Positions 47,195-64,000 of a stretch of DNA of 64,000 nt are shown one piece after another. Positions within the stretch are counted from its first letter, which is position 1. Every line of letters begins with the position of its first letter. Both the position numbers and the translations under genes were made by a program. The notes under the pieces are model-generated. The model was not told the origin of the DNA. It saw only the letters and a program-made list of their open reading frames with translations, and searched no databases. Source of the DNA: Sporobolomyces roseus (Eukaryota; Basidiomycota; Microbotryomycetes; Sporidiobolales; Sporidiobolaceae); assembly GCA_016617785.1 (NCBI GenBank), contig JADILM010000001.1:1550001-1614000 (forward strand). The letters are read 5' to 3'.

Positions 47195-49184
47195 CTAGCA
47201 GTTCTCCCTCTCCTCCTTTGCGACCGCTTCAGCCCATTCTCCAACTGCCTTCTCCAACATCTCTTCCCATCCTTCTTTCCTTGAAGCAATCACTCGCGCA
47301 TCAAAGGGCCTTGCACCGAATTCGAGTGGTATGGTTGACGAAGGAGGATTCTGTGCAGAGAGAGTGATTGAATAGCGATGTTTGAGCGCTCTGCGAAGCC
47401 AAAAAACCAATCAGCGAACTTCCTCGATATTACTCTCCTCACTGAGTGCTTCATCGGAGCTAAGCAGCAAGAGCAAGGTCTAAGAAGGAATTCTCAACTC
47501 ACGCAGCCCAACTTTGTAAATTCTGAACTCTCCTGAACGTATTCCCGACTTTCTCTCCCCCATCACTCGCACCGGACCAACTTCTCTCCATTCCGCTCGA
47601 TTCAGGAGCAGCTGTCGAGAATTCGTGGATCGAAGTAGACAGGATGAAACCAAAGGGGCTTGAAGAAGATGCGAGGACTTGATTGTAGGATTGACAGAGG
47701 ACGGTACCGGTTGACAGGATCGATAGGAACTCGAGTCGGGAATTTGGGTTCGAAGTGAGAGGGACCGAGAGGGAGGGGAGCTGGGAGAGAGTGGTCGGAG
47801 GGAGATGAGCTTGAATGATTGAGTACGCTCGATCTGGCAGAGGATCTCGAAGGGGTTGTCAACCTCTGATCCTCATCGACAGCTGAGTAGAGCGCAAGCA
47901 GACGTACCTAATGATGATTCGAATCCTTGTCCTTCAGCCCAAGAAGGTAGCTTCTCCTCCTCTGATTCTTTCTGACCCTCGGAAAACCCTTCGTCCCTCA
48001 TTGATCCTTCACTCCTCCTCCCTCTCTGCCTTTTCGCTACATCCGATAGATCCAGTAGCAGTTGTACGCTCCCGATCCATTCCGTAACGAGCTCACTCTC
48101 CTTCCCACGCGATTCAAGTAAAACCGATTCATCGTAAATCGTCAATTCTGATTCTTCGTCCTCCTCCTTCACTTGTTCAACGAGCGTCGATTCTGAGGCT
48201 GAAGAGGGCGCGCCGATCCCTAACACGGTACGATATTGTTCCTCGACTTGTTTGAGCATTCCCAAAACGTCCAAACTTTGTTTCCTAACCCTCACTACGA
48301 CTCTATCTCTCTCACTCACCTCCGACACCTCCTCTTCAACTCCAATCGAAGAGGATCGACGAGAATGAGTAATTGAAGTCGGAGGTGGTGGTGGTCCTAG
48401 GGAAGTTCGGGGTCTTGCTGCTGTTGAGATGGAGAGGGGATCGTTAGGCGTTTGTAAGAGATTCGAGGTGGAAGTGGAGGTGGAGGTGGAGGGTAGGGAA
48501 TTTAGCCATTGTTGGATCGAGCGAATTGACGAGGTCGTTACGAGGAGTAGATTCGTTAGTGAGGGGCCGGAGTTCGAAGCTTCCGAGTCGCTTAGTTGCC
48601 ATCTGTTGTATTACTTCAGTACCAATCAGCTGAACTCGAAAGAGTGGAAGAGAAAGAGAATCGCCTCACGTTTCACGAACTTCGTTCAAGGCTTCAAAAA
48701 CTTGATTCCTCAATTCCTTTTCATCCTTGACACTCTTCCCCGTTTCTCCCGTCTCCCATGGTAGCGTCGTACTTATTGTAGGTCTCTCCGGTTCCGGTCC
48801 CAAGATCAATCCCCTCTCATCTCCCTCATCCTCTCCTCGCTTCCTCCAACTCTCCTCTTGTCCCGCCATTCCCTCTCGTCTCCCAATCCCTCTATTCTCT
48901 TTCTCTTTCTCTTTCTCTTTCTCGCTAGACTCGATCCCAATCTTTGCAAACCCATGTTGTAAATGAGCGATCGAGGGTAAAGTCATGACGGATTGACGTT
49001 TCAACGCGGATCTCGCGAAAGGTTGGTCGGATTCCGCTTTCGAAGGTGTCGGTGCGATCGGACGTGGCGATAGCTTCCCCCTATTGACCGGTGACGCCTC
49101 CGTCTGCACTCCTACATCCACCTTCTCCACTTTCGTCTCTGCCTCTTTCGTGAAACTCCCGAATTCGAGTTCTCCATTCTCCAT
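47195..49184 (-). CDS. Unrecognised protein, 578 aa, with possible CH-like C-terminal domain
   Basis: Four exons (48670-49184, 47908-48602, 47503-47833, 47195-47390) close to 578 aa. The start at 49184 (MENGELEFGSF) is the first in-frame ATG after a stop. The N-terminal ~170 residues are charged and disordered with an EKEKEKEKEN repeat. The middle has a Ser/Thr tract (STSTSTSTSN) and helices. The C-terminal ~170 residues look folded: LEFLSILSTGTVLCQSYNQV resembles the core helix of a calponin-homology fold, followed by GEKVGNTFRRVQNLQSWAAA. That comparison is weak. It may be a cytoskeletal or cell-end adaptor, by inference only. Confidence 0.65.
48893..48931. repeat. CTCTTT hexamer-type tandem repeat (codes for EKEK)
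   Basis: Tandem TTCTCT units on the plus strand, inside exon 1 of the 578-aa protein, where the minus strand encodes alternating Glu-Lys. Confidence 0.85.
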
Positions 49185-49350
49185 CTCGTCCTTCCCCTGC
49201 GTCGATCCACCTGTTGACCTGGACGCATTCGGTATTCTCGCATAGCTCCTCGAATGTGAGAAACGTGCTGTCGATCCACAGGAGACATCTCCGATACTTG
49301 AAATTGACGGAGAGGGAAGATTTCAACGTTGCATATCACTACACAACTAG

Positions 49351-50144
49351 CTAGCAGTGCACGAATACAGAGCTCCCAAAGTGATAAAGGAAACCTCGCG
49401 GCGTTCCATCACGGAAGGTATAGAACACTACAGGTTCAGCCACTGGCGCTGTAAGAGCAGGCCAAGTGTAGAGTAAAGTTTTTGAGAGGCTAGCTTCAGC
49501 TGTGAGAAATCACGACGGATAAGTCATACGTACAGCCGAGGAAAGAGAGAGGAGCTTACCACTTCCGACCGAGATCACAATAGGAGTTTCCATCAAAGGA
49601 CCCTCAACCATTCTTTTCTCGACCTGTTCAACTTGATGCACTCTTAGTCATTGAACTACAGTAGAGAGTCGGAGAGAGATGCTCACCAAAGGAAATGTTG
49701 ACTCTAGCTCTCTTCGGCTTGAAGCTGCGAAGACGGAGGCGAACATCGAGGCCTAAGCGCGAACGACGAAAGCAAGAGATCAGTGCTCGTTCTGACCGAT
49801 CAGAGATTCCACAGTAGCTCACCAAGGTCCGTCGCTCCGTCTGTGAGTATATCGTGTTCTTGCTCTTTCGGAAGTGGGAGGGTGAAGAGAAGAGAGGTGA
49901 AGTGAGAAGTGATGGAAAGGGAAGCAAGAGCAGAAATGAGAAATCGTCTCTCGTCTTTCACCTCCGACGGACTCCGCGCACCCAAGACGCGCGTCACAGA
50001 CCTTCGCAGTCTCTTCGCAGTCTTTTCGCAGCTCATTAATGCATTAGGGGCCCACTCGGAGCACTTCCCGACGAATGTTCTCGACGGAGTCCCTCGCGAA
50101 AGAATCGAATCAACGACGGCGCTCCTGTCGTGGATCTTTGGCAC
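49351..50144 (-). CDS. Unrecognised small protein, about 202 aa
   Basis: Four exons (49823-50144, 49687-49752, 49560-49631, 49351-49499) close in frame to 202 aa when started at 50144 (MPKIHDRSAVV); a later ATG at 50034 is also possible. The folded part begins ERRFLISALASLSITSHFTS, then LLFTLPLPKEQEHDILTD, VRLRLRSFKPKRARVNISF, MVEGPLMETPIVISVGSG and VFYTFRDGTPRGFLYHFGSS, ending VFVHC. The alternating hydrophobic pattern suggests a beta-rich fold. No family recognised. The stop is ~165 nt from the start of the 578-aa gene on the same strand. Confidence 0.6.
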
Positions 50145-51214
50145 TCAGCGACCGAGGAATCGATGAACGGCTTGGATTGAATGTTTACCAGTCTCCAGGG
50201 TACTAAGGCAAGCGACATTCGGATGAAAGTCCGAAAAAGAGAGTGAATCATCCATTTCGCACTCGAGAAGGTGGCGAAGGTATCCCGTGCTTCGTTTGCG
50301 AACGAACATACGAGACAGAAGCTCGAGGGAAGCTCGAGGCGATCCTGCGCGCTACAGACTAGCGAGAACACGATGAAGGGAAGACCAGAGGCGAAGTGGC
50401 AGAACAACGGCCTCAAAACGGTGTGAGCCTTTGATCAACCGTGCTGGAAGCCTCAGGGGGTCATTGCCATCGATGAAGTGACTCCGAAGGACACCGAGAA
50501 GTGCCTAATCTCAAGGATCGCGCAAGTGCGGATTTCGAACGAGATCGGAGTTTCGACTGTTCGTATCGTATTCTCTCGACCGATCCACCGCGCATACGTT
50601 GACTCGCTCATCTAGCGATGCAGCTACTATTCTTCCATAGATCGCATCCGCGCTCGACAGGATCTCGTGAGAGTCTCGAGAATCGATTGTCGGCTATAGA
50701 GATGACTCTTGCGAAAGAGATCATTTGAGCTCTCCGAAAAGACCCGAGAATACCGCGACCCCAGTCGTGATGAGCTATACGAAGCCAACACCGACAACCG
50801 AATGTCGATAGCAAAAGTGTAGCCGCTTTCGTCAAGTGTCGTCGACTCGCTTTGTTCCTCTGTATTGACAACAGTTTCTGTTTACCTTTCGAGCTTGACA
50901 GTGATTCGAGCACTGCGCCGTCGAGTTTGATCGTATCTGTTATTAGGAATGAGAGTTGGATACGTTTTCTACGGATTCCAAGTTGTTGAGAGAGGGACGG
51001 TTTTTGTAGTCTCTCTTCTCTTTCTTTCTCCAGTTAATAGACACCTTAGAACGCTGTCTCTAGTTCAAGTTACCGACTGAGAGATCTCTACAACAGTATC
51101 GAAGCAGCTCAAGACATCCTCTCGTGACTGAGATGAAAACAGTCAACACGGAGAGTTTTCAACAAGATGCGATTACTCAACAAAAGATTCCCCCTCTCTC
51201 GAAAGCCAACTGAA
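50145..51214. other. 1.07-kb stretch without a supported gene
   Basis: The longest gene-poor interval after 14.6-15.7 kb. No tRNA boxes, snRNA signatures, long open frame with splice context, or terminal repeats were recognised. It separates the PHD-finger gene (3' end at 51215) from the small gene starting near 50144, so it must hold that gene's promoter and the PHD gene's 3' UTR. A spliced or noncoding RNA cannot be excluded. Confidence 0.4.
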
Positions 51215-53870
51215 CTAAACGTCTACTTCCATCCTACTGCAAGTCTCGCAATACCACGACCCTTCGGGAGGAGTCGCGATACCGACACAAACAAAATGGT
51301 ACTGCAAAACATCACGATTTCGATCAGCGAACCCCTTTCTGTGCGCGAGAGAGAGAAGAGAGAGCGAGAGAGAGAGACGTACCCATTCAAATTTACATCC
51401 CGCACTGTCACAACCGATCATCTCTTCATTATCCTCCAATCCGCAGAAACAGTGAACTCCTTGTTCTCGTAATGCTTGCACCTCATCGTCGTCGTCGAGC
51501 ATCGGAGGAGGTGCAGCTTTGAACGAAGTACGACGGGTTCGAGTCGACCGGAGAGGACCAGTAGTGAACGGAATAGGCGGCGAGTTTATTTCGCTGCGAA
51601 AGTGCAAGATCACTCGAGTCAGCGAGTAGTACTAGAGAATCCTCTTCAACGGGGATGGATTCGAGCGAAAGTGAAGAGCTTACAATTCATCCTCATCCTC
51701 ATCATCATCGTCATCCTTCTTCTTCTTTCCTTTTCCTCTTCGACTCTTGCCTCCTCCCCTCTCACTTTCGACACCTCTCCCACCTTTCTTTCCTCCAGTC
51801 TTCTTTCCTCGACCTCCCGAGATCTTCCCTCCAGCGCTCATCAAATCCTCATCTTCTGTCGATTCCTCCGCTTCGTAACTCGACGAAACCCCTTTCTTCC
51901 CTCTCTTCTTCGTCCTTCCTTTTCCACCACCTGCTGTACCTGCAGCTCCTCGTTTCTTTCCTGTCTTCATCTTCTTCTCGGTCTCTTCCTTCTTCCGATC
52001 CGATAGTATAACTGCCAACTCTGCTTCGCTTATACCAATCCAACAGATTCCGTCTTTCGCGAGATTCGCTCGACGATGACTCGAAGCTGCATACAGAGGC
52101 TAGAATCAGTTCGTTTCGTCACTTTCCGTGAGAAGAAGAGAAGTTTTGGACTCACGTAGATAATCCAAGCACAACCACTCGAACACATCTCGCTCATCCT
52201 TGAACACCTTCGGTTGTCCCCCGTTCGTCCAATCAGCATTCTCATATCCTCCGAAACCACTCAATACTTTTCCCCTACCATCGACGAAAGAAGCATCGAT
52301 ATCAACATTCGACTGCGACAGACGAAGAGAGAATAGAACGTACTGCCTCCTCGCATGCCTCATCAAACAATCACTGTAATAAGCTGAAGAATGGACGAGA
52401 GTCCTCATCACCGGTAGATTCCTCCTCTCCACAAACCACAAATCGAGGAAAGTGATCTTTCCGTTCAAACCTCGTTGACCGACGGTTGCGAAAGCGACGC
52501 CATCGTTGCTGGAGAAACTTCTGGGTAGCTTGGATCGATCCGCGTTCGAAGCGGGCTTGTAGACGAATCTGCACGGGAAGAAGACCTTCGGTTGATGCCC
52601 AGGATCCTCTTCTTCTTCCTCTGTTGCTATATGCCCATCGCAGTGTATCGTCAGTCTCCTTCTTGTCGCGCCTAGAAGAGGAGAGAGCGATCGAGAAGCT
52701 TACAGTGATTCCCATTCAACCAATCCAACCACTTCTCTACCAATTCCCTCGTCCAAACATCCGCAATAACCAAGAAATCTCTGTCGTGACCCTTGAACCT
52801 ACCAGCTCCACCGCTGTACAGGAGTCATCCTCGTCAGCAGCGACGCAAACGAAGGTTGACGAAAAAGCGAGATAATTTACCTCCCACCTCTCTCCAACTC
52901 GACATCAACCGGAGAGGAGTATTCCTTCAACATGTAACGCAGGATATCGGTAAGATCCTGGCAATTCTCGAGCGTAATCTCACTGCACAGTAAAGGAGAG
53001 AGCTGATTAGCAACTCGTCGTTTCGAAGAAGATAGAGAAGAAAGCTTACAATTGAATGTCTTCCATTACCTTCAGATACTCAAGTTGACCCTTCTCGTAT
53101 TCGTACGAGTGAGGTTTCCATCGACGATTAACTCTCGGTTTTCGTAGGTCGTCCGCGAATTCCTCAGGAGTTCTGATGCCTTTCTCCCTCAAAGCTCCAA
53201 CCGATGTCAATCCTGCCACACTCTCACCAGATCGTCAGCATCCGATCACAAGGAAGAGCTCAGAAGGTACTGCTCACCGATTCCAGGAAATCTGATCATT
53301 TTCATCTTCTCCTCCTGATAAGTTGCAGAGCCTTTGATTTTCTCTACTCCCCTCACCCCTTGTCAGCATGATCGATGAGCACATAGATCGAGACGAGTAG
53401 ACTGACCTGCTTCACCAACGATACCCCCTTCAATGATCATCTGCGAAAGATCGAAATCGACCGGACGATTGATCTAAAGTTTCATCTCGACTCTTTCGTC
53501 AGCTTCGAATCAAACAAGCGAGAATCAGGTACGAACTCACATCATCCTGAAACCTTTGTACTTGATACAGAGCAACCAACTTCTCATCCGTCCTGATCGC
53601 GAAACGCCCAAGATCCTCTAAAAAGAACAACGTCTTCTTTTTCTTCTCGTCGCCTCCGTGCAGGTTCGCTAAACCATATCGGAACGTCAGCTCACAGTTC
53701 TCGAGCTAGTGAGGAGAGTAGAGATACTTACCTTCGTCCATTGCGATCGACGCATGCTTGACTGATATTCCATCAACGATATCTCGATTCTTCGACAGGA
53801 GATAGCCGTGAGGATTCTTCAGAACCTCCAGGTCCCGCCAAGCTACGTGGTTCCACTTGTCTGAACTCAT
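51215..53870 (-). CDS. PHD-finger protein with unknown N-terminal region
   Basis: Eleven exons close in frame to 648 aa (53732-53870, 53541-53668, 53407-53473, 53278-53343, 53050-53212, 52881-52982, 52704-52813, 52156-52626, 51684-52086, 51383-51593, 51215-51301). Begins MSSDKWNHVAWRDLEVLKNP. Includes RFPGIGLTSVGALREKGIRT, which resembles a helix-hairpin-helix; two or three Trp-rich segments (VWTRELVEKWLDWLNGNHY); a basic/acidic linker (GKKKKDDDDDEDEDEL); and at the C-terminus a complete ING-like PHD finger (CFC...EEMIGCDSAGC...WYHFVCVGI...WYCETC), a reader of histone H3 N-termini. The first 450 residues match no family I know. Same strand as, and 382 nt downstream of, the Fanzor-like gene. 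Confidence 0.8.
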
Positions 53871-54252
53871 AAGCGCTTGTAGTAGAGTTAGAGTTGATGA
53901 AGTTTGAGGAAGAGAGAGGAAGAGAGAGAGAGAGCTGTGCGTTTCGATCGGCTGCGAGTGGGGTGAAACATTTTCGTTCCTCTCACTCTCTCTCCTCCTC
54001 CTCATTCCTCTGATGTACAGCACAAACAGTAATTAGTATTGACGGATACAACAAGAAAAAGCAAAACCAAAAAAGGGAGAGCGAGTAAAATAGTTTCAAA
54101 CGAAGACGTTTCCTCCTGCTCCAGCGATTCGAGCTCGCATTTCGTTTTGTTCTCGAGTCGGAAGCTTTCCTTGAGGTCGAGTGAGGGGTCTATCAACGAC
54201 GCATGTATATCAGCAATCTCCTCTTCGACTTGGAAGACATAGAGCGCAAAAC
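53871..54252. other. Interval downstream of the Fanzor-like gene
   Basis: 382 nt holding the 3' end of the Fanzor-like transcript and the promoter of the PHD gene. Contains a (GA)n tract at 53910-53935. If the last exon is spliced at 54258 instead of ending at 54253, translation could extend to 54002 with a hydrophobic tail; I prefer the shorter model. In Fanzor/TnpB loci the guide RNA usually maps at and beyond the 3' end of the gene, so this is where one would be expected. Confidence 0.4.
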
Positions 54253-57200
54253 TCACTCATCAACAACAGCTTTTCGGGTTCCGATTTCAGGCAAAGCGAA
54301 TTCATCCTCCAAGAGCTTCTCGTCGAGCTGAGCGAATAAGAACGAGAGTCAGTGTCGACAATCGAGACGAGAGATGGATAATGAGAGCGAGGACGTGAAG
54401 GAAGCAGTCCGGAACGTACCTCGACGAGTAACCTCCTCTCGACCTCTAACATCTTCTCCGCTTCCTTAACATCAAAAGCTTCCAACAAGTCTTGTCGCTT
54501 CTGTGCGAGGATCTTCGCTCGTCGGAAGGCTGCTCGTTGTTTGTAAAGCCAAAGCTCCGAGTTTCGCTTAGCGTACTTGGCTCGATTCGCTTTCCTGGGT
54601 CGGAGACGCTTGTGATCTTCTCGTCGTTTCGGAATCGGACGACCGTAAACCGTGTTCTCGTGAGCGGGAGAAAAGAGGTGAACTCCTGTCTTTCCTCCGA
54701 GGATACCGGCCATCAGAATGAGAAGAGCAGAACCTCCATCGCGATGATCGAGTCGTCCGCATCCCTCGCAGGCGGTACTTCGATTGATGATGTGACCATC
54801 GACGACAGATTCCGGATGAAAGATACTAGAGTGAAGAAGGAGAACATCGATCAGTAGTTACTCGAGGTAGGATTCGAACGTTGAGAGCGAGACCTCACCC
54901 TCCAGCGAGGCAGAAGGAGCAAGATTGGGAAGTCCAGAACTCGTTGATCAAGAAAACGATATAGGTGATATCCGGGCGTTTTCGCAAACATCGGAAAAAC
55001 ATTTCCATGATAACTCGATCCTTGTTGTGTCCTGACATTCCACTCGAGTTTGGAAGATCATCCGCTCCGTCGAAGATGGATAGTCGCCAAGTCCTTCCCT
55101 TCCTCCAAGGCATCATCGAGTTGATTTGAATCGTAATGAGTCGTTCTAACTCCGATTCCTCCTTGGCTTTTTGCTGTCGACCGTAGCTCTTGATTATCGA
55201 GGAAGTACGTCCGAAACGAGTAGACAGAGGTGTGTTTGGATTGCGTGAGTTGTAGTCTTCGATCGATAGTTTGGCTGCGAAAACGCGAAGATCATAAGTT
55301 TCGTCGTAGTCGAGAACGAGAGAGAGAGAATCGGAGCTTACCACCTTGCGCGTCCTTGTTGGGATCTGTATCGAGTAAGCTACATCAGTCTCGAGAAAGT
55401 AGAGAGAGCGGAGACAAGAGTGTGAACGCACGAGTGTTAAGTTGACCTATTTCTCCGACGAGTTTGTCAGAACGGTCACGAGATGATAGAGGGAGAAGCG
55501 AAGCTCACGATAGATATCATCCTTCTCATTAACCCCAGTCAACTCCGAAAGATTCGAGACTACTTTCGATCGAGTTCTTTGATCGCCAACCACTCGATTC
55601 CTCCTGAAGAGATCCCTATATCCTTGCTTCTTCTGAGGATCTAACCAACAGCCAGCGACGTGAACAACGTTTCCTCGATCGACACCGTAAAACATCGTAT
55701 CTTCGTTCTCGTTCTCGTTCTCGTTCTCGTCTCGCGTCTCCCACTTCAATCGTTCTAGATTTTTTTTCATCAACTTGGTATCGTTCAGCATCTCCTTTTG
55801 CTTCTTCGTCGTCGCCTTCCAAAGAGTTGTACTCCCGTTGTCCGGATCTTCAAACTTGAGATCAACGAGCAGAGGATCAAGTTCCGAATTCAACCAGAAC
55901 TTGGGTTCAATGTGTCGACTCAAGTCGAGAACGTCGGATTCGCTGGCAGACGAGTTGGTAGATGGTGAGGAATTGGTAGATGATGAGGAATCGGAAGATG
56001 AGGAGGAATCGGAAGATGAGGAGGAATCGGATTCGTCGAGATCAGGGCGCGGTGTTCGAGCGGCGATCCAGTAAGCGCGTGACTGAGACCAGTTTCGGCT
56101 GATCGTATCGTTCGATCGTTTGGTTTCGTTCGGAGTAACGTGCATGAGGGACTTGACGTCTCGTAACGCCTCTTGGAATTTCGGTTGTCTCTGAGTTGCA
56201 GGCGTCTTGAAGTTGTCGTCTATAGTCCTCGTGACTTCCTGAACTCCTTGAGGGTTCCACGTGACGTAGTCTCGATGAACGACTAACTTCTCGATCAAAT
56301 CGACGAAAGTCAAGGCAGCTGCGAGAATCAATCGATAGATTAGCGTCGCGATCTCGATCATTCGAGGAAGATAAGAGCGAGCTCACTGTCCTTAGGAAGC
56401 TTATCGAGCCATCGAGCGTCTCGATAGAGCAGGTTGATCGTAGTCAGAGTAACGATGAAACTCCAAGGAAGGTAGATACCAGGTCGATCACATCCAAAGA
56501 GGAGGTTCATGAATTCTGCACGTAGGTGATTGATGACCTTCTTGTAGTAGTCTCTCGTTCCGGTCTTCCCCTTCTCGACTATGATGACTGATTCGAAGAT
56601 CGTGCGAACCGAATGACAAACTTTCTCGCTTCGTTTCTTGTTTCTGGGTGCAAACTTGACAAATCCTTCGACAGGTTGTTGATAAGCGACATCGAAGGCT
56701 GAAGCAGAGGCGAGAGGTTCGGAGGTTTGAAGGCGAGGATAGGAATGAGAGATCGTTGCGATTCGTTGTGCCGGAATCAGTCGGTGAAGACCGTTGATCT
56801 TTCTTCCTGGAAATCGTCGAGATTGGTCGTACTCATCGGAATCGAGCGCAGGTGTCGAGCGAGGAAGAGGTTGATCTCGCTTGCGGTTCTGACGATCGTA
56901 AGTCGATTTCGCGGTCTTCGGATCGAGAGATGAGTAGAATCGATGGGCGCTCGACTTGGCTCCATAGACTTCTTTCGCTTCGAGCCCTCCTCCTCCGATG
57001 GTTGTCGGATTCGATTGGTCAGGAGGCGGATTCGAAGAGCCCTTTCCTCCTCCAGCTTGAGGTTCCTTGACGATGTCGATCTCCTTCTTCGGTCCAGAGA
57101 GAGCTCCATCGGCCTCGATAGCTTGTACTGCACGAGTCATCGCTCGAGTCTCGTTCTCGTAGAGATTGTCGAGAGCTTGAACGAGAGGCGGCTCCGAACC

Positions 57201-60200
57201 CTTGGCGTCGGGAGTGACATAGTAATAGAGTAGATCAGGAGTGCATACACAAGCATCGGGGTCGAATTTCTGTTCGAACGAGAACGAGAATCAGTGATCG
57301 AAAGGAATCCCGAGGGAAAGAAGGGATCAAACGAACATGCTTGATCGTTCCGGCGAGTGCGAGAACCAAGAGTTTGAATCGTTCCATTCCTTCGTAAGCT
57401 TCAGATCCCAACTTCCCAGTCTTCAACTCCTTCAATAAAGTAAGAATCGAACGTTTGGCAGGCAAAACGGTACGAACTCCACCCTTGAGGTCGATAGGTT
57501 GAGTCGTTCTCACCTCGCGACCGGATCTCGTAGTCGCTTGAGGAGCATTCGTAGATTTGCGGAGGGCGCATGCGACGAATTCGACGAGAGTAAGAGGAAG
57601 AAGTCGTGCAATTCGTCGGAGAATCTCGGCAAGGGAGTTGGTAGCGTTGGTTATGTCGACGATTCCAATCTGAGTGAGAGGGGCATTGGGCGAAGTGGGG
57701 CTGAGAAGTAGAGTTTCGAAACGAGCTCGAAGGCGATGTCGAAGAGCAGGAGGGAAATCGGGAAGAGCGGTTTCTTGTTTGGTTTCTCGTGTCTCCCAAT
57801 CTGGTGCTTCTCCGGATAGACCGTAGGCGATGAGATCGTTGATCAGGAGAGATCCATCCTTGTCCGATTCCTCGAGGAGCTTCCAGAGTTCGAGGGTACG
57901 GTGAGGGAGAGGAGTAGCGTTCTCGAGGGCGAAGATCGGGAACAACTGATGAACGAGTTGATAGATTTTAGGAATGCTAGTAGCGGGAGAGAGGAGGAGC
58001 GAAGTGAACAAGTCTCGAATCCATGCGTCGTCCTCGAGTTTCTTCGTCCAATGATTGAAACTCGCGACGGCCATATTCTTGATCGATGGTTCAAGTCGAC
58101 CGTGGACGTCGGGCGCAGAGTACTTGTCACCAGATGCGGCATGACTGGCTTCGACACCGAGACGATACATGTAATCCCATGTCTGTGAGGCGTAGAAATG
58201 GTCAGCTTCGAATCGAGAAACAAGCGAGAGAGATGAACGAACCCCTTGAACATTCGGTCCCGGCTGACCGTTTCCCAGCTTCACACGCTCGCGGAACACC
58301 GACTCCATTCTTCCCTCGATCTTCTCAACTTTGAGCTCCAATTCGAAGAACAAGCTTGGAGAGCGCTCGAGGGCGAAAGCGAGACAGAGTCCCCAAGCTT
58401 CGTTGCCAGCCTCGAGTTCTGGAGTCATCGTAGCACGAATCCACGAAACGGCATGAAACATCGACTCGTCGCTCTTCATGACTGATCAAATGCGGAAATC
58501 GGAATCAGCGGCGAGAAACTAGAGGAGCGATGCGAGAAAGAGCGAGCGTACCTTTCGCAGAGTCGTCTGTAGGTAGTAACGAACTGTATACCGTCGTTGG
58601 AGAACGTGGAATCGTTCGCCATCGATTCTTGAGATCTTTCAACTTCGTCGAGTTGAGACGAGGCGGATCGGGAAATTCGGGAGGAGTGGTAGGTTCGATC
58701 TTGTTGCTGTCATCGATGAGGTCGAGCTGCTGCTGAAGAATTTTGGCGGCGGGAGTTCGTTCTCGGTGGAAAGGTAGATCTTTACCCTTGTCGGTAAGTC
58801 GAGGATCCTCGCGTCTCGGCGTGTCGTCAAGGTATTCGTCAGGAGGAGAACCTGGCCATTGCGATCGAGCGAGGTACTCGTGGTTGTGAGGGCGAGACTT
58901 GTCCGAGCAATTCGCTGCCTCGACTTGCTCGGCGATCTCCTTCATCTTTTCCGCTCGCTCCGTTTCAACCTTCTCCTCCATCTCCTCGAACACACGCTTC
59001 ATAAGATCCTCCTTGTTGAACTCCTTCCCATACATCGTACCCTTGGTCGTTTGCTGAAGTCTCCAAAGTTTCTTGAGATCCAATGTTTTGAGTTCCTTCG
59101 ATTGAGGGAGTTTCGATCGGTGATTCTCCCATTCCTTCGAGTATCGTACGATGTCCTCCTCCTGCGAATTGTCGATAGCAGCGCCGTAGAGAGTAGTTTT
59201 CTTCAGGAAGAAGTCGAGGAGAGGGGCGTGATCTTCTTCTAGGAGAGTTTCCGGACTGATTCCATCGGGTTTGAAGTACTCGTTACCGCAGAGGAGCATG
59301 ACGGCACTAATGACGTCCGGAGAGAAGCTTTTGAAGAGGGTGGGGACGAGTTCCGGAACATGGATCAGGCGTTTGGACTGAACGAATCGTTGCTTTTCGG
59401 AATCGAGAGGGGGAAGGATTGGGGATCCAGCGGAAGGTTGAATCGCGTTTTCGAGATAGGAAGTGCGACCAAGTCGAACCTTCTGAAGGATCCAGTCGAA
59501 CCACGAGAGATTTCCGGTTCCGAATTGATCGTTATCGACGAGAGTCGAAACCGTCCGATCGGACGGGTACTTGAAGTCGGCGGCGGTACCTCCGTTGAAG
59601 TAGGCGCAGTGTTCCACTTCGGGATCATCTTGGGGACGTTGGAGAGGATCAGGATTCGTAACGGAACGGAGGAGCGATTCTCCTTCTCGGTTGGCGTAAG
59701 TTATTCGGATTCGGGAGAGGTTGGCAGAGGAGACGAGTTTGGTAGGATCCTAGAAGAGGAAAGAGGAAAGATTGTCAGCGAACGATCTCGAAGGAGGGGT
59801 AAGATGAGAAAAGGTAGGAGACTGACGAGGTCAAGACGGGTACCGGGAATCGGGAATACAGCGAGATCCAATTCCGTGATACGTTTGCGTTGGGGAGCTG
59901 AGTGAGTATCATCAGTGAGGTGCTGAGAGGGGTGACAAGTGAAGGGGAGAGTCGAACTTACTAGCTGGTTTTTCGAGGTTGCCTTGCTCTCCTGGATCCT
60001 CCTCTCCCGCTCCTCCTTCTCCCTCTCCCTCTCCCTCTCCCTCTCCCTCAGTTCCCTTCATCATGATCGGTCCACTAGCTCCTCCATCAGCACCTACTCC
60101 TCCATGATCCTCGCTCTCCTCCTTTCCCGCTTCCCCACCCTCGACCTCCATTCCATCGATTCGATCTTTCGATTCTCCCTCCATTTCCTCCACTCCCTCC

Positions 60201-60835
60201 ATCGGCTTTCCACCGATCAAGTCATCTCTCGCCTCGTCCAACTTTCCCTCGGCCCCATTCGCTGATTCGTCGCCCTCCAGAACAATCTTCTCGGCACCCT
60301 GCAGATCCTCGTTTCGTTCTTTCCAACGCTTTCGCTGCCTCACATTGTTACTCCTGCTTCGTGACTGAGCAATCTCCTTCTTCTTCTCCTTATTCTCCTC
60401 CTTTCCTTTGTCGTGACGCCGTTTCAACGCTTGTACTCTGATCCGCTCCTTGTCTGTTTCCAGCTTATCATCCGGTCGAGCAGGACCTTCGACCAAGTAA
60501 TCATGATGGGAACCGGGAGCATCGGCTTCATTTTCGTTGATGTCTTGAATGATAGCTAGCTGGACTCGAGTTTGGCGCAATTGAAGGAATTCGTCGAGGG
60601 GTAGGTTCTGAAGGTTAGGAGACTCCATCATCTTCTCGGTAACTTGATGAACGATACCGCTGGTTTCGGAAACATAGTGAACGGGTCGAGGGGGTGGGAC
60701 TGGGTTCGCGGGAGGAGTAGTAGGAGAGGGACGTAGGGTACCTTCGCGTATTCGATACATGAGTGGTGCGGAAATTCGGGCGACGATGGCCAATCCGAGC
60801 CTCATGATAGCTGGATAGATCTTGGTTCCACCCAT
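54253..60835 (-). CDS. Giant Fanzor-like (TnpB-related) RuvC nuclease-family protein
   Basis: Twelve exons: 59962-60835, 59827-59897, 58552-59749, 58243-58481, 57337-58182, 56387-57269, 55509-56318, 55432-55446 (15 nt), 55342-55365 (24 nt), 54899-55274, 54420-54825 and 54253-54327. They total 5,817 nt, exactly 1,938 codons plus stop. The C-terminal ~400 residues show the Fanzor/TnpB core: RuvC-I FYGVDRGN (Asp ~1584, codon 55678-55680), LSIEDYN, a Glu in INEFWTSQSC (~1765), knuckle cysteines CSFC and CEGC, and RuvC-III HRDGGSA (Asp ~1808). The canonical RuvC-II Glu is not obvious; the site ~45 residues upstream reads IFDGADD, matching the known rearranged active site with alternative Glu. The ~1,550 upstream residues (acidic, Ser-rich and helical blocks) are unrecognised. 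Start MGGTKIYPAI; an ATG at 60991 is possible. Confidence 0.75.
55702..55730. repeat. GTTCTC hexamer tandem repeat (ENENEN)
   Basis: Four to five GTTCTC units inside the exon just upstream of RuvC-I of the Fanzor-like gene, encoding alternating Glu-Asn. Confidence 0.85.
55962..56037. repeat. Imperfect repeats encoding Ser/Asp/Asn-rich low complexity
   Basis: Repeated GAGGAATCGG(A/T)AGATGA units on the plus strand; on the minus strand they encode SSSDSSSSTNSS-type sequence in the Fanzor-like protein. Confidence 0.8.
60017..60049. repeat. CTCCCT hexamer tandem repeat (GEGEGE)
   Basis: Five CTCCCT units in exon 1 of the Fanzor-like gene, encoding Gly-Glu alternation. Confidence 0.85.
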
Positions 60836-61164
60836 GTTGAGTTGGAGGAGGGAGAGGGAGGTGAAGTGGGAGGTTTGTGCGGCTCGAAGGAAAAGGCAAG
60901 GGAAGAAGATTGGAAGAAGTTGGGAGGGTGAGAGTAGACTTGAGAGTGTTGGGTGAATGGGTAGTGAATGGTTTGAGCTACTAATCGGCAAAGCTCAATC
61001 GATGAAGGAGAAGAGGGAGAGAGGAGAGAGGCAAGAATTTGGAGGCCATCGGACTTGCCGGTTCAAAGTGGGTTCAAACGAGAAAGGGGCGCAAGTACAA
61101 TAGCGACGGTGAATCGCGCTTTGTGGATTCATTAGCTGATGAGAATGAATAGTCGAGGGTTTGT

Positions 61165-61455
61165 TTGTGGAAACGCTTTGAGCGATTGCGCTCGTCGATG
61201 CGATTTTCGTCGCAACTTTCTTTCTGGCGGCTACAGCGGCACCAGCGAATAGGTAGATTCGTCAACGATTACAGAGGGACTGGATTGCCTCGAGCGAACG
61301 CAGTTTTTGAGCTCAGGAGTTGGGATTTACCAGGAGGGAAAGGGAAAGGAATCAGAATGGCGATTTTTGCAGGTCCTCACGGGATAGAGAAAGGCAGTGA
61401 GGTATGCGTATCGTATGGGAAAGGGTTCTGGGACAACAGGAGGAAGCAAGAATGA
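61165..61455 (+). pseudogene. C-terminal half of a SET domain, N-terminal half missing
   Basis: The frame from 61165 to 61455 contains GRFVNDYRGTGLPRANAVFE, GIRMAIFAGPHGIEKGSEV and CVSYGKGFW: the pseudoknot-forming NHxxx-type motif (NDYRG variant) and the terminal YGKGFW of SET lysine-methyltransferase domains (fungal NDYRG subgroup). The cofactor-binding N-terminal half (GxG, YxG) should precede it, but only ~180-330 nt separate this from the divergent Fanzor-like gene and no frame there supplies it. A weak upstream stretch at ~61055-61150 (SDGESRFVDSLADENE) may be a relic of it, but no GT-AG splice joins the two in frame. Best read as a truncated or decayed gene; a very small single-exon gene is the alternative. 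Confidence 0.55.
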
Positions 61456-61954
61456 GTGAAGAAAAGCTGGCCGGCTCGAGTCAAGCGTCGAAGCAACGTT
61501 GCGAAGAACTCATTGATTACAATACCCTTCATTTTATCGATACCCTCTCTCCTTGTCCTGGCATATACCTCATTCGTCGATTCTTGACGTTGCATGTATT
61601 CTCCTTACCCTGGCGCACTGCAAGCCGACGGGGAGAGTGCAAGCGAAATCAACGAAGGAGAGCAAGAAAGCGGTCGAAATTGCCGCCTCTTTCGTCGACT
61701 TTTGCTGAACCTCATCCTCACTAGCTTCGTTCTGATCGTGGTCGCGAAACATCTTGAAATATGCTGAGATGTTGCGAAAATGACGATTTGGTCACTCTCT
61801 GCTCTTTTTCGCTTCAACCAACTCCACTCCTCTAAATCGATTAGACGCCTCAGCAATACACCCATAGCCTATAATCAACCTACTCAGGGCGGTCTACCTC
61901 GTCAAACCTCCCTCGAAGCCCGCCTGATGCGACTCCTTCAACTCTCTGTTCAAG
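61456..61954. other. Intergenic, UBP8 promoter
   Basis: About 500 nt between the SET fragment and the UBP8 start; frames here show no recognisable product. Confidence 0.35.
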
Positions 61955-64000
61955 ATGGCTCAAACGAGTACCACAACGCTAGTACAACCACCTTTACCCT
62001 CCTATCCTACACTAATACCTCCAACTCAAGCTCCTACGCCTTCAACGAGCTCTTGCAGTCATGCAGTCAATTGGCTCGGCTCGAATTCGACTCTCAACTT
62101 GGAGCGGTTCAATCTCGCTGCTAGCTGGAATTTAGGTCTCGATCGTGGTGGTCAAGGATCTGTGAGCTCCTCCTCTACCTCCACGTAAGCTAAGATTGAG
62201 CTAATCGAGTGACGCGCGTTCAGGTTGCTACCCCTCTTTGCTCAATTTGTCGCAACATTCCACTTCGTCCCTTTCTCTGCCTCACTTGCGGTACCTCCAC
62301 ATGCGGGAAACTCTCCAACCACTCCCACTCTCATCAGCACGCTCAAAAGGAGAATCATTCACTAGGTGAGAAATCCCTCCCTCTCCCTTTTTTTCTCTTC
62401 TCTCTCTCTTTCCTTTTTTCTCCCCCGCTTCTCATCCGAGAGCTGATCCCTCCTTTGTTTGGATAGCGTGGGATCTAAGGTCTGAAGCAGTGTATTGTTT
62501 CGGATGCGAGGATTACGTTTCGAACCCTGTCCTGGCGAGAATCGCGAAAGCTGAAAAGCTGGGTAGGAGGGACTTTACGAAACCTGTCGAGGGTCCACCT
62601 TGTAAGTTACGCCCATCCTGTCGCATGCTCGCTGCATACTATACGTCTCCTCGACTGTGGAGAGATCGCTGATATAGCACGCCTCCTCATCTCACAGCCA
62701 AAAAGAGGAAAAGGACGAGAATGGATTTGACAAGGTTCACCTCGTCTGACCCATCGGATTCTTCCGCTTCGCTCCTCGCTGTTCCTGGTATGATTTCTCG
62801 AGAATACTGCTACCGGAGATGATCTTTATTGACTGCCGACCGCGCATCGTTCTAGCTCGAGGAATCCGAAATTTGGGAAACAGGTTCGTTTCGACATTGC
62901 ACTTCCTTCCGCCTCGGCTGCTCCATCTCATCGTCTCGAACATCACTGACGATAGTGTATTCGATGATATCGACAGCTGTTACATGAGCGTAATCTTGCA
63001 ATCTTTCTTCCTCAACCCATTCCTGAAAACCTATTTCCTGTCCGATCGACACAACCGATCTACCTGTTCAAGAGCGACACAAGGCGATCCTTGTATCTCT
63101 TGTGAAGTTGATGGACTGTTCTCGGAGGTGAGTTTGAAGGTCTTCATTCGCTTCAGACCAGAAAGCTGAATTCGATCCGTCCTGCAACACAGTACTATAC
63201 GTCAGAGAGTCCGAGTCTGGCGCCTACAAAGTTCTTGCACGCGTTCTGGCAGAGCAGCTACGAAGCTCTTGGATACGCTCAACAAGATGCTCACGAGTTT
63301 CTCATCTCCAGTAAGTCTCCTATCGATGCGCGAAAGCATCCTCTCTGGACGCTGTCCAGCCATCGACCATTAGAAGAATCCTCCCTTTTGATCATCGCGC
63401 TGATCTCTTCGTCTCGTCTCTTTCGCACTCACCTTGCCCTACCGACAACCCTTCGAAGCGCTGTCCCTGTATAGTGCACACGACGTTCTCAGGCCAGCTC
63501 AGATCTCAAGTTCGATGCGGTCGATGCGGACACCAAAGCGAGACTTTCGAACCTTTCTTGGATTTGAGTTTGGATGTGAGGGATCGAGTGCTGGGCAAGG
63601 ATCATAAGCGGATAGAGGAGTGCTTGAACAGGTACGCTGAGACTTCGCTATTTGCCAGCGAGAGAACGGGGAGAGAAACTGACTGCTCTCGACTTGTTCA
63701 AATATAGCTTCACGACGGCGGAGAAGCTGCCAGCGCAATACGACTGTGCTGCTTGTGGCAAACCTCCGGAGCAGGCAAGTAAGAGACTGAGTATCAAGGC
63801 TTTACCTCAGGTACTCTGCGTTCAGCTCAAGGTGCGGTCCCTGCTTCCCGTTGTCTCTACTCGAACATTGCGAGCTGATTCTCTTCACCACTCTCCTTCA
63901 TACTTGTAGCGCTTCGAGCATACGAGTGCAGCGGGAAGCAAGATTGATACATTTGTCAAGTTTCCTCTCAACCTCGACATGGCTCCTCATTTGAGTTCAA
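61955..64000 (+). CDS. UBP8: Ubp8/USP22-type ubiquitin hydrolase of the SAGA DUB module (runs off the window)
   Basis: Removes ubiquitin from histone H2B as part of SAGA (known of the family). Start MAQTSTTTLV at 61955. Exons 61955-62161, 62224-62366, 62467-62601, 62698-62787, 62856-62883, 62977-63127, 63193-63310, then further ones to the window edge. An N-terminal ZnF-UBP domain (CSICRN, CLTCGTSTCGK, HSHSHQHAQKENHSLAWD, YCFGCEDYV) precedes the USP domain: IRNLGNSCYMSVILQSF with catalytic Cys at 62978-62980 (Ser where Thr is usual), AQQDAHEF, and zinc Cys pairs in VRCGRCGH and YDCAACGKPP. The junction after 63310 is unresolved: frame is kept only by a 26-nt intron to 63336. The C-terminal His box lies beyond 64000. 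Confidence 0.9.

What the first reader, a model, noticed from the sequence alone, without database searches (positions are those of the whole stretch)
54253..60835. Fanzor/TnpB-type RuvC core at the end of a 1,938-residue, 12-exon gene
Seen in sequence: an Asp in GVDRGN, a Glu in INEFWTSQSC, CxxC pairs, and HRDGGSA in the right order and spacing, and a twelve-exon model that sums exactly in frame. Known: Fanzor proteins are eukaryotic RNA-guided nucleases related to TnpB, usually far shorter, and many use an alternative Glu instead of the canonical RuvC-II Glu, as seems to hold here. Inference: this is a Fanzor fused to, or expanded by, about 1,550 residues of unknown N-terminal sequence in a heavily intron-bearing gene, which suggests long residence in the host and possible domestication rather than a fresh insertion.
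Basis: partly seen in the sequence, partly recalled or inferred. Interest (0 to 1): 0.87.

Follow-up and report, generated by a model that had tools for sequence, protein, structure and literature searches.

The report
Giant fungal gene with Fanzor-like nuclease
A basidiomycete yeast carries an unusually large, intron-rich gene whose last part looks like the cutting domain of Fanzor, the eukaryotic relative of CRISPR enzymes; its structure suggests a host gene kept in place rather than a jumping element, but whether it is guided by RNA is untested.

Summary
A Sporobolomyces roseus protein (1,954 aa, 77% identical end to end) supports one continuous gene. The own-genome searches found two more giant relatives (2,020 and about 1,805 aa; cores 30% and 24% identical); all 11 introns of one pair in order and phase with window introns. 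D1584, E1765, four zinc cysteines and D1808 are invariant in 4 of 4 family members. The core is homologous to the TnpB/Fanzor family from RuvC-I to RuvC-III, but the comparisons fit TnpB as well as Fanzor1. The glutamate sits exactly at the Fanzor 'alternative' place; the other Fanzor fingerprint, DPG, is absent (DRG/DRG/DGG/DVG). No WED/REC similarity, no usable structure model, no terminal repeats, no recent copies, no guide-RNA-like structure downstream were found. Best reading: a long-resident host family from an alternative-Glu TnpB/Fanzor nuclease, with its catalytic residues kept and about 1,580 N-terminal residues of unknown kind. RNA guidance is inferred only. The paper searches found no description of such a family.

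The parts
59962..60835 (-). exon 1 (874 nt); start codon at 60835; acidic, Gly/Glu-rich and basic stretches
   Evidence: first 100 residues 92% identical to S. roseus P0001
59827..59897 (-). exon 2 (71 nt)
   Evidence: flanking introns match C5 in phase
58552..59749 (-). exon 3 (1198 nt)
58243..58481 (-). exon 4 (239 nt)
   Evidence: the 60-nt intron after it (58242-58183) is required by P0001 and has a partner in C5
57337..58182 (-). exon 5 (846 nt; 846 nt in C5 also)
56387..57269 (-). exon 6 (883 nt)
55509..56318 (-). exon 7 (810 nt) with RuvC-I, GVDRGN
55678..55680 (-). codon of RuvC-I Asp D1584
   Evidence: invariant in 4 of 4; position derived from the exon table
55432..55446 (-). micro-exon 8 (15 nt; 15 nt in C5)
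55342..55365 (-). micro-exon 9 (24 nt; 30 nt in C5)
54899..55274 (-). exon 10 (376 nt): between RuvC-I and RuvC-II, alternative Glu, first CxxC
54940..54942 (-). codon of alternative RuvC-II Glu E1765 (E-x6-CxxC)
   Evidence: definition of Ealt; position derived
54420..54825 (-). exon 11 (406 nt): second CxxC, RuvC-III HRD, FSPAHE
54738..54740 (-). codon of RuvC-III Asp D1808
   Evidence: position derived
54257..54327 (-). exon 12 (71 nt)
   Evidence: 94-nt homologous exon in C5

Best explanation
The gene is one member of a small family of giant proteins (about 1,800-2,020 residues) that have long resided in the host genome and end in a TnpB/Fanzor-type nuclease core (RuvC-I, RuvC-II with the displaced Glu, zinc ribbon, RuvC-III). 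The ancestor was most likely a Fanzor or another TnpB-family nuclease with the alternative Glu; which branch is not resolved. Shown: one gene, conserved exon structure, conserved catalytic and zinc residues, homology of the core, no sign of recent mobility. Inferred: the protein is a nuclear, metal-dependent DNA endonuclease whose N-terminal part (about 1,580 residues) takes the place of the WED/REC lobe, binds an RNA guide and/or target DNA, and positions the RuvC core to cut. RNA guidance is the least certain step.
For: Single gene: S. roseus P0001, 1,954 aa, 77% identical over 1-1968; all 11 C5 introns pair in order and phase with window introns, five of them at the same alignment column and six within 8 columns. 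Core homology: PF07282 in 4 of 4 members, best E 6.7e-7; NF040570 guided_TnpB in 3 of 4, best E 6e-4; local hhalign score 42.7 (P 5.3e-5, 148 columns) to a Fanzor1 profile and 46.9 (P 9.7e-6, 53 columns) to a TnpB profile, against maxima of 23.6 and 22.1 in 150 column shuffles each; global mode starting at RuvC-I, score 32.6 to Fanzor1 and 36.4 to TnpB against maxima of 11.0 and 7.2 in 50 shuffles each. Ealt in 4 of 4. Immobility: only three copies found, cores 30% and 24% identical to the window's, 3' flank single-copy, no terminal inverted repeats of 18 nt or more framing the gene.
Against: RuvC-I is DRG, DRG, DGG, DVG, not DPG. The profile comparisons score TnpB slightly above Fanzor1 in both modes, and the second cysteine pair is CxxC as in TnpB, whereas the four Fanzor1 cores compared have C-x4-C (read). 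TNB score of the window protein is 23.1-23.4 bits, below Pfam's cut-off of 26.3; guided_TnpB 18.2 bits against a cut-off of 100. Profile search of the PDB finds nothing at E<=10 although Fanzor1 and TnpB chains are there. Parts of the family score weakly alone (against Fanzor1: window+P0001 P 5e-4, C5 0.003, C1b 0.16). The N-terminal part shows no similarity to Fanzor1 WED/REC (P 0.49). AlphaFold model pLDDT 37. No excess folding and no significant shared sequence in the 3' ends of the three genes; no Rfam hit.
Confidence: 0.6

Rival explanations
1. The core still folds as RuvC/zinc ribbon but no longer works with an RNA guide: the protein is a guide-independent nuclease or a nucleic-acid binder (for instance in recombination, repair or chromatin), recruited from a Fanzor/TnpB-type protein.
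For: No guide-RNA-like structure or conserved 3' element; no recognisable WED/REC; DPG absent; the gene sits as an ordinary intron-rich gene, 225 bp from the next gene (my reading).
Against: All three catalytic carboxylates, the alternative Glu spacing and the zinc ligands are kept in 4 of 4 members although the paralogue cores are only 30% and 24% identical to the window's. Guide RNAs need not lie next to a host gene.
Confidence: 0.27
2. It is the nuclease of a large mobile element (a Fanzor transposon) that is merely old in this genome.
For: Published Fanzor1 proteins are frequently carried by transposons (passages).
Against: Only three diverged copies found, with shared introns, no framing terminal repeats, single-copy 3' flank, neighbour upstream is a deubiquitinase-type gene; the S. 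roseus protein is collinear over its whole length.
Confidence: 0.07
3. The likeness is to the zinc ribbon only: an unrelated giant protein with a TnpB-like CxxC/CxxC end and a coincidental Asp upstream.
For: The local alignment to TnpB is confined to 53 columns around the ribbon and RuvC-III; fold not modelled; the shuffle controls do not guard against likeness of zinc ribbons as such.
Against: Invariant upstream Asp in a DxG context, invariant Glu at exactly the Ealt place, RD, and global alignments that start at RuvC-I beat 50 of 50 shuffles for both profiles.
Confidence: 0.05
4. Gene-model artefact: two neighbouring genes run together.
For: No transcript data were available.
Against: The S. 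roseus relative is one predicted protein of 1,954 aa and the same exon chain recurs in paralogues.
Confidence: 0.01

Closest known systems
Fanzor1 (SpuFz1, PpFz1, GtFz1; RNA-guided DNA endonucleases)
   Same: D...E-x6-C4 zinc ribbon...RD/RN core; core can be aligned from RuvC-I to the C-terminal end; eukaryotic
   Different: 1,968 aa against mostly 600-700 aa (passage of PMC11423790) and up to ~800 (passage of PMC10711439); no DPG; second Cys pair CxxC instead of C-x4-C; no detected WED/REC similarity; not seen in a transposon; no guide RNA found
TnpB (IS200/IS605, IS607), e.g. E. coli InsQ, ISDra2 TnpB
   Same: zinc ribbon and RuvC-III, CxxC/CxxC; global profile score as good as to Fanzor1
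   Different: canonical TnpB Glu lies ~50 residues upstream of the ribbon (passage); about 400 aa; in insertion sequences
Fanzor2 / pro-Fanzor / other alternative-Glu TnpBs
   Same: alternative Glu (passage)
   Different: smaller; Fanzor2 and pro-Fanzor have DPG and IS607-type elements (passages); none of these sequences was compared here
Domesticated transposase genes (general, recalled)
   Same: few-locus, intron-bearing host gene from a mobile-element protein
   Different: catalytic residues kept; I recall no domesticated Fanzor, and the paper searches listed none

Membership tests
Fanzor/TnpB superfamily (Bao and Jurka motif) | D-x(125,275)-[TS][TS]-x-x-[C4 zinc finger]-x(5,50)-RD | tested here: met
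   4 of 4 family proteins match a regex of this form (D-x(125,275)-E-x2-[TS][TS]-x2-C..., x(4,8) before RD); motif
Fanzor/TnpB superfamily | PF07282 TNB / zinc ribbon | tested here: met
   hit in 4 of 4, best E 6.7e-7, but the window member has 23.1-23.4 bits, below the 26.3 cut-off
Fanzor (Fanzor1/Fanzor2/pro-Fanzor clade) | alternative RuvC-II Glu, six residues before the first zinc Cys | tested here: met
   4 of 4; definition, which also says that some TnpBs with D-hydrophobic-G share it
Fanzor (Fanzor1/Fanzor2/pro-Fanzor clade) | DPG at RuvC-I ('near exclusively') | tested here: not met
   DRG, DRG, DGG, DVG; SpuFz1 itself reads DPN in the chain printed, and none of the four fits the listed D-hydrophobic-G of TnpB either
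Fanzor-like TnpB search pattern (PMC10711439) | 12-18 residues between the CxxC pairs | tested here: not met
   22 residues in 4 of 4; weak as a test, since the pattern was made for TnpB searches and the Fanzor1 cores do not fit it either
Fanzor1 | C-x4-C second zinc pair, as in the four Fanzor1 cores used here (my observation, not a published definition) | tested here: not met
   CEGC, CEPC, CHHC, CAEC in the family; read for Fanzor1
Fanzor1 | WED and REC domains upstream of RuvC, TDG motif in WED | tested here: inconclusive
   no similarity by hhalign (P 0.49); no structure available
Fanzor1 | RuvC/RNase H fold | tested here: inconclusive
   AlphaFold2 on 414 residues with 4 rows: mean pLDDT 37.3, pTM 0.25; not used further
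Fanzor | guide (omega/right-end) RNA and RNA-guided cleavage | not testable with these tools
   indirect look at 3' ends negative
Fanzor in a transposon | terminal repeats, multiple copies | tested here: not met

The most novel reading that the evidence does not exclude
Sporobolomyces-type yeasts own a small family of immobile, host-encoded, giant RNA-guided DNA endonucleases: a Fanzor-type lineage that was taken over by the host before ancient duplications, has an N-terminal lobe of about 1,580 residues, keeps its active site, and now serves the cell (for example genome defence or programmed DNA cutting).
Probability: 0.35. Interest if true: 0.92.

Novelty: new variant of a known kind. Interest (0 to 1): 0.73.

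Why it matters
In the papers seen here Fanzors appear as passengers of transposons and viruses. A long-resident, few-locus, giant family with an intact set of active-site residues in a yeast genus makes the question 'do eukaryotes use a nuclease of this lineage, perhaps RNA-guided, as their own?' directly testable, and offers an N-terminal part for which no Pfam family and no Fanzor1 likeness was found.

Tried and rejected
Rejected: the ending at 54253 (S. roseus protein and paralogue show another exon); my own first models that read through short introns. Separate-gene and recent-insertion readings rejected as argued. A claim of descent from Fanzor1 in particular was dropped on rechecking: in the same global mode TnpB scores as well. 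Led nowhere: protein database searches with the cores of C1b (2,477 candidates, E<=0.001) and C5 (2,693 candidates, E<=1) gave no hit, and the first search gave one hit among the 7,981 best candidates, so the reach of the family beyond S. roseus is unknown; these searches see only relatives that share exact words and lie in a length range. Profile search of the PDB: nothing. Viral contigs with the family alignment: 94 pattern stretches, 0 relatives. PHROGs and PADLOC hits weak. AlphaFold model not usable, hence no fold search. PF01844 in the own genome was an idle check. PF07282 in the own genome gave 0 hits at E<=0.001, probably because an intron splits the domain and the match is weak. The first 3'-end folding run used the stops of models that lacked the last exon of C5 and C1b; it was repeated at the final stops, again negative (most negative z -1.3 in 24 windows).

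Literature (listings only, unless passages are cited): 0 papers of the library hold Fanzor with basidiomycete, Basidiomycota or Rhodotorula; Fanzor with fungi and introns gave 6 papers, 5 listed, Fanzor with domesticat 18, 10 listed, TnpB with domesticat, eukaryot, fungal genomes 2, Fanzor with TnpB and eukaryot 54, 30 listed, Fanzor with RNA-guided, intron, widespread in eukaryotes 7; no listed title or abstract start describes such a family. One search (two of five terms) listed 5 of 660, none holding Fanzor. The Jiang et al. 2023 survey (recalled) was not held, so its tables may contain one of these proteins; supplementary tables of the papers were not readable here.
Full report
What is there. 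The finding lies on the minus strand of a 64-kb stretch of a 22.4-Mb, 15-contig genome. A homology search with residues 1200-1958 of a preliminary model returned one protein at E<=0.001 among the 7,981 candidates that were scored: P0001, Sporobolomyces roseus JCM5353_001609, 1,954 aa. It is 77% identical over the whole length, so the host is probably a close relative of Sporobolomyces (Basidiomycota, Microbotryomycetes; lineage); this rests on this one protein. P0001 fixed two points of the gene model: a 60-nt intron, 58242-58183, and a last exon, 54189-54096. The gene then has 13 exons and 1,968 codons.

A family of three. Searching the own genome with the C-terminal core, and again with the cores of the hits, found the window gene and two others, on C5 near 1.649 Mb (L009) and on C1 near 4.093 Mb (L010), and no more (the search scores only the best candidates, so this is a lower bound). 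Both are giants: C5 2,020 aa in 12 exons, C1b 1,805 aa in 13 exons. C1b's model needs one unusual GT..AAG intron, so a frameshift there is possible. The C-terminal cores are 30% (C5) and 24% (C1b) identical to the window's. The N-terminal parts are also related, clearly for C5 (residues 801-1368, 23% identity, E 1e-12, and 354-614, E 2e-7) and only faintly for C1b (best 354-413, E 0.009). The intron phases are 1,0,1,0,0,1,1,1,1,2,0,2 (window) and 1,0,1,0,0,1,1,1,1,2,2 (C5); all 11 C5 introns have a window partner of the same phase, five at the identical alignment column (1357, 2003, 2008, 2018, 2143) and six within 8 columns. C1b shares two exact columns (1357, 2143); eight further introns have a partner of the same phase within 24 columns, two are its own (one of them the odd one), and it lacks partners for two window introns. 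Micro-exons of 15+24, 15+30 and 24+24 nt and a 94-nt last exon (window and C5) recur. The N-terminal part, the core and the introns therefore probably existed together before the duplications.

The nuclease core. In the four-member alignment A1 the invariant residues include D1584 and G1586, E1765, S1769, C1772, C1775, C1798, C1801, H1806, R1807 and D1808. Pfam's TNB domain hits 4 of 4 members (best 6.7e-7; the window member 8.3e-5, below the curated cut-off), NCBIfam guided_TnpB 3 of 4 (best 6e-4, window member 18.2 bits against a cut-off of 100). PDB profile search: none at E<=10. To compare with Fanzor and not only with TnpB, I took a Fanzor1-type ORF from an IMG/VR contig (L081; DPG, TDG, DEFRTS); it matches the solved Fanzor1 chains of Parasitella, Spizellomyces and Guillardia at 3.9e-35 to 4e-23. 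Local profile comparison of A1 with the four Fanzor1 cores: score 42.7, P 5.3e-5, 148 columns; with four TnpB cores: 46.9, P 9.7e-6, 53 columns; Fanzor1 with TnpB: 51.2. Column shuffles reached at most 23.6 and 22.1 in 150 trials each. Subsets are weaker: against Fanzor1, window+P0001 P 5e-4, C5 0.003, C1b 0.16; against TnpB 8e-6, 0.006, 0.0015. In global mode the alignment to Fanzor1 pairs RuvC-I Asp with Asp, the alternative Glu, the ribbon, RD and the end of the protein (FSPAHE near the Fanzor1 end, such as RPSYLSRS): score 32.6, P 3.9e-6. On rechecking, the same mode against TnpB gives 36.4, P 8.1e-7, also from RuvC-I on; 50 shuffles each reached at most 11.0 and 7.2. So the homology covers RuvC-I to RuvC-III, but these comparisons do not tell Fanzor1 from TnpB. 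The second cysteine pair is CxxC, as in TnpB, whereas the four Fanzor1 cores have C-x4-C (read). What points to the Fanzor side is the Glu place and the eukaryotic host.

Membership. The paper that names the fingerprints (PMC10711439; passages and section 7 read) gives two: Glu six residues before the zinc finger, and DPG at RuvC-I; it also reports TnpBs with this Glu but a hydrophobic residue in place of P. The first is met in 4 of 4. The second is not met in 4 of 4. WED/REC similarity was not found. So I do not file the gene as a proper Fanzor; I call it a giant Fanzor-like family whose branch within the alternative-Glu TnpB/Fanzor proteins is open. Fanzor2 and alternative-Glu TnpBs were not compared.

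Mobility. The 3' flank (53860-54500) is single-copy, and so is 60836-61254 upstream. No inverted repeats of 18 nt or more frame the gene; the three inverted pairs found in 52000-63500 are low-complexity CTCCCT runs. The next gene starts 225 bp downstream (53870, my reading), and a gene with a zf-UBP domain (38.9 bits) and sub-threshold UCH pieces lies upstream. Published Fanzor1 proteins are frequently carried by transposons (passages of PMC3627910); the fungi named in its table, as far as shown, are chytrid-, mucor- and ascomycete-type species (my grouping), no basidiomycete.

How it may work. The kept carboxylates and zinc ligands argue for a working RuvC nuclease. Proteins with such a core cut DNA under RNA guidance (PMC10432273, passages and section 5; PMC11423790, passages). 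By analogy the giant would do so, with its own N-terminal part as the guide and target lobe. Nothing here shows a guide RNA: no Rfam match at gathering scores from 48000 to 64000, no unusual folding (most negative z -1.3 in 24 windows of 120 nt around the three stops) and no significant shared sequence in the 3' ends (best blastn E 0.03). A host gene could use an RNA made elsewhere, so this is weak evidence against. Basic stretches near residues 138-175 (for example KRRHDKGKEENKEKKK) could be nuclear signals; this is seen, not tested.

Verdict. Observation confirmed with a small correction. 'Giant, long-resident gene with a TnpB/Fanzor-type core and the alternative Glu' is well supported; 'RNA-guided' and 'proper Fanzor' remain open. 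It is a new variant of a known kind and worth the bench work.

Noticed in passing
window 61255-64000 (continues 458 bp beyond, to C1:1614458): About 3.2 kb with the zf-UBP/UCH gene is duplicated in inverse orientation about 380 kb away (C1:~1996246-1999499) at 95-97% identity; one breakpoint lies 420 bp upstream of the giant gene's start, which is not part of the copy.
   Followed up: partly
window 60013-60049, 55967-56031, 55703-55734: Short tandem repeats in the giant gene (Gly-Glu, Ser/Asp and Glu-Asn runs); the first two lie in the parts least like the S. roseus protein (40% identity in residues 201-300, 55% in 1401-1500).
   Followed up: no
L081 1-4079: A 4-kb IMG/VR contig encodes a Fanzor1-type protein of about 655 aa with DPG, TDG and DEFRTS; a search with it found only its own contig.
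   Followed up: partly
L084-L089: Six IMG/VR contigs hold a short DEFRTS-x2-C-x2-C stretch in an open frame of only 22-31 residues (two near-identical versions in L084-L088), like decayed or interrupted Fanzor pieces.
   Followed up: no
L010 7843-7773: The C1b paralogue needs a GT..AAG intron here; a frameshift or an assembly error is the alternative.
   Followed up: no
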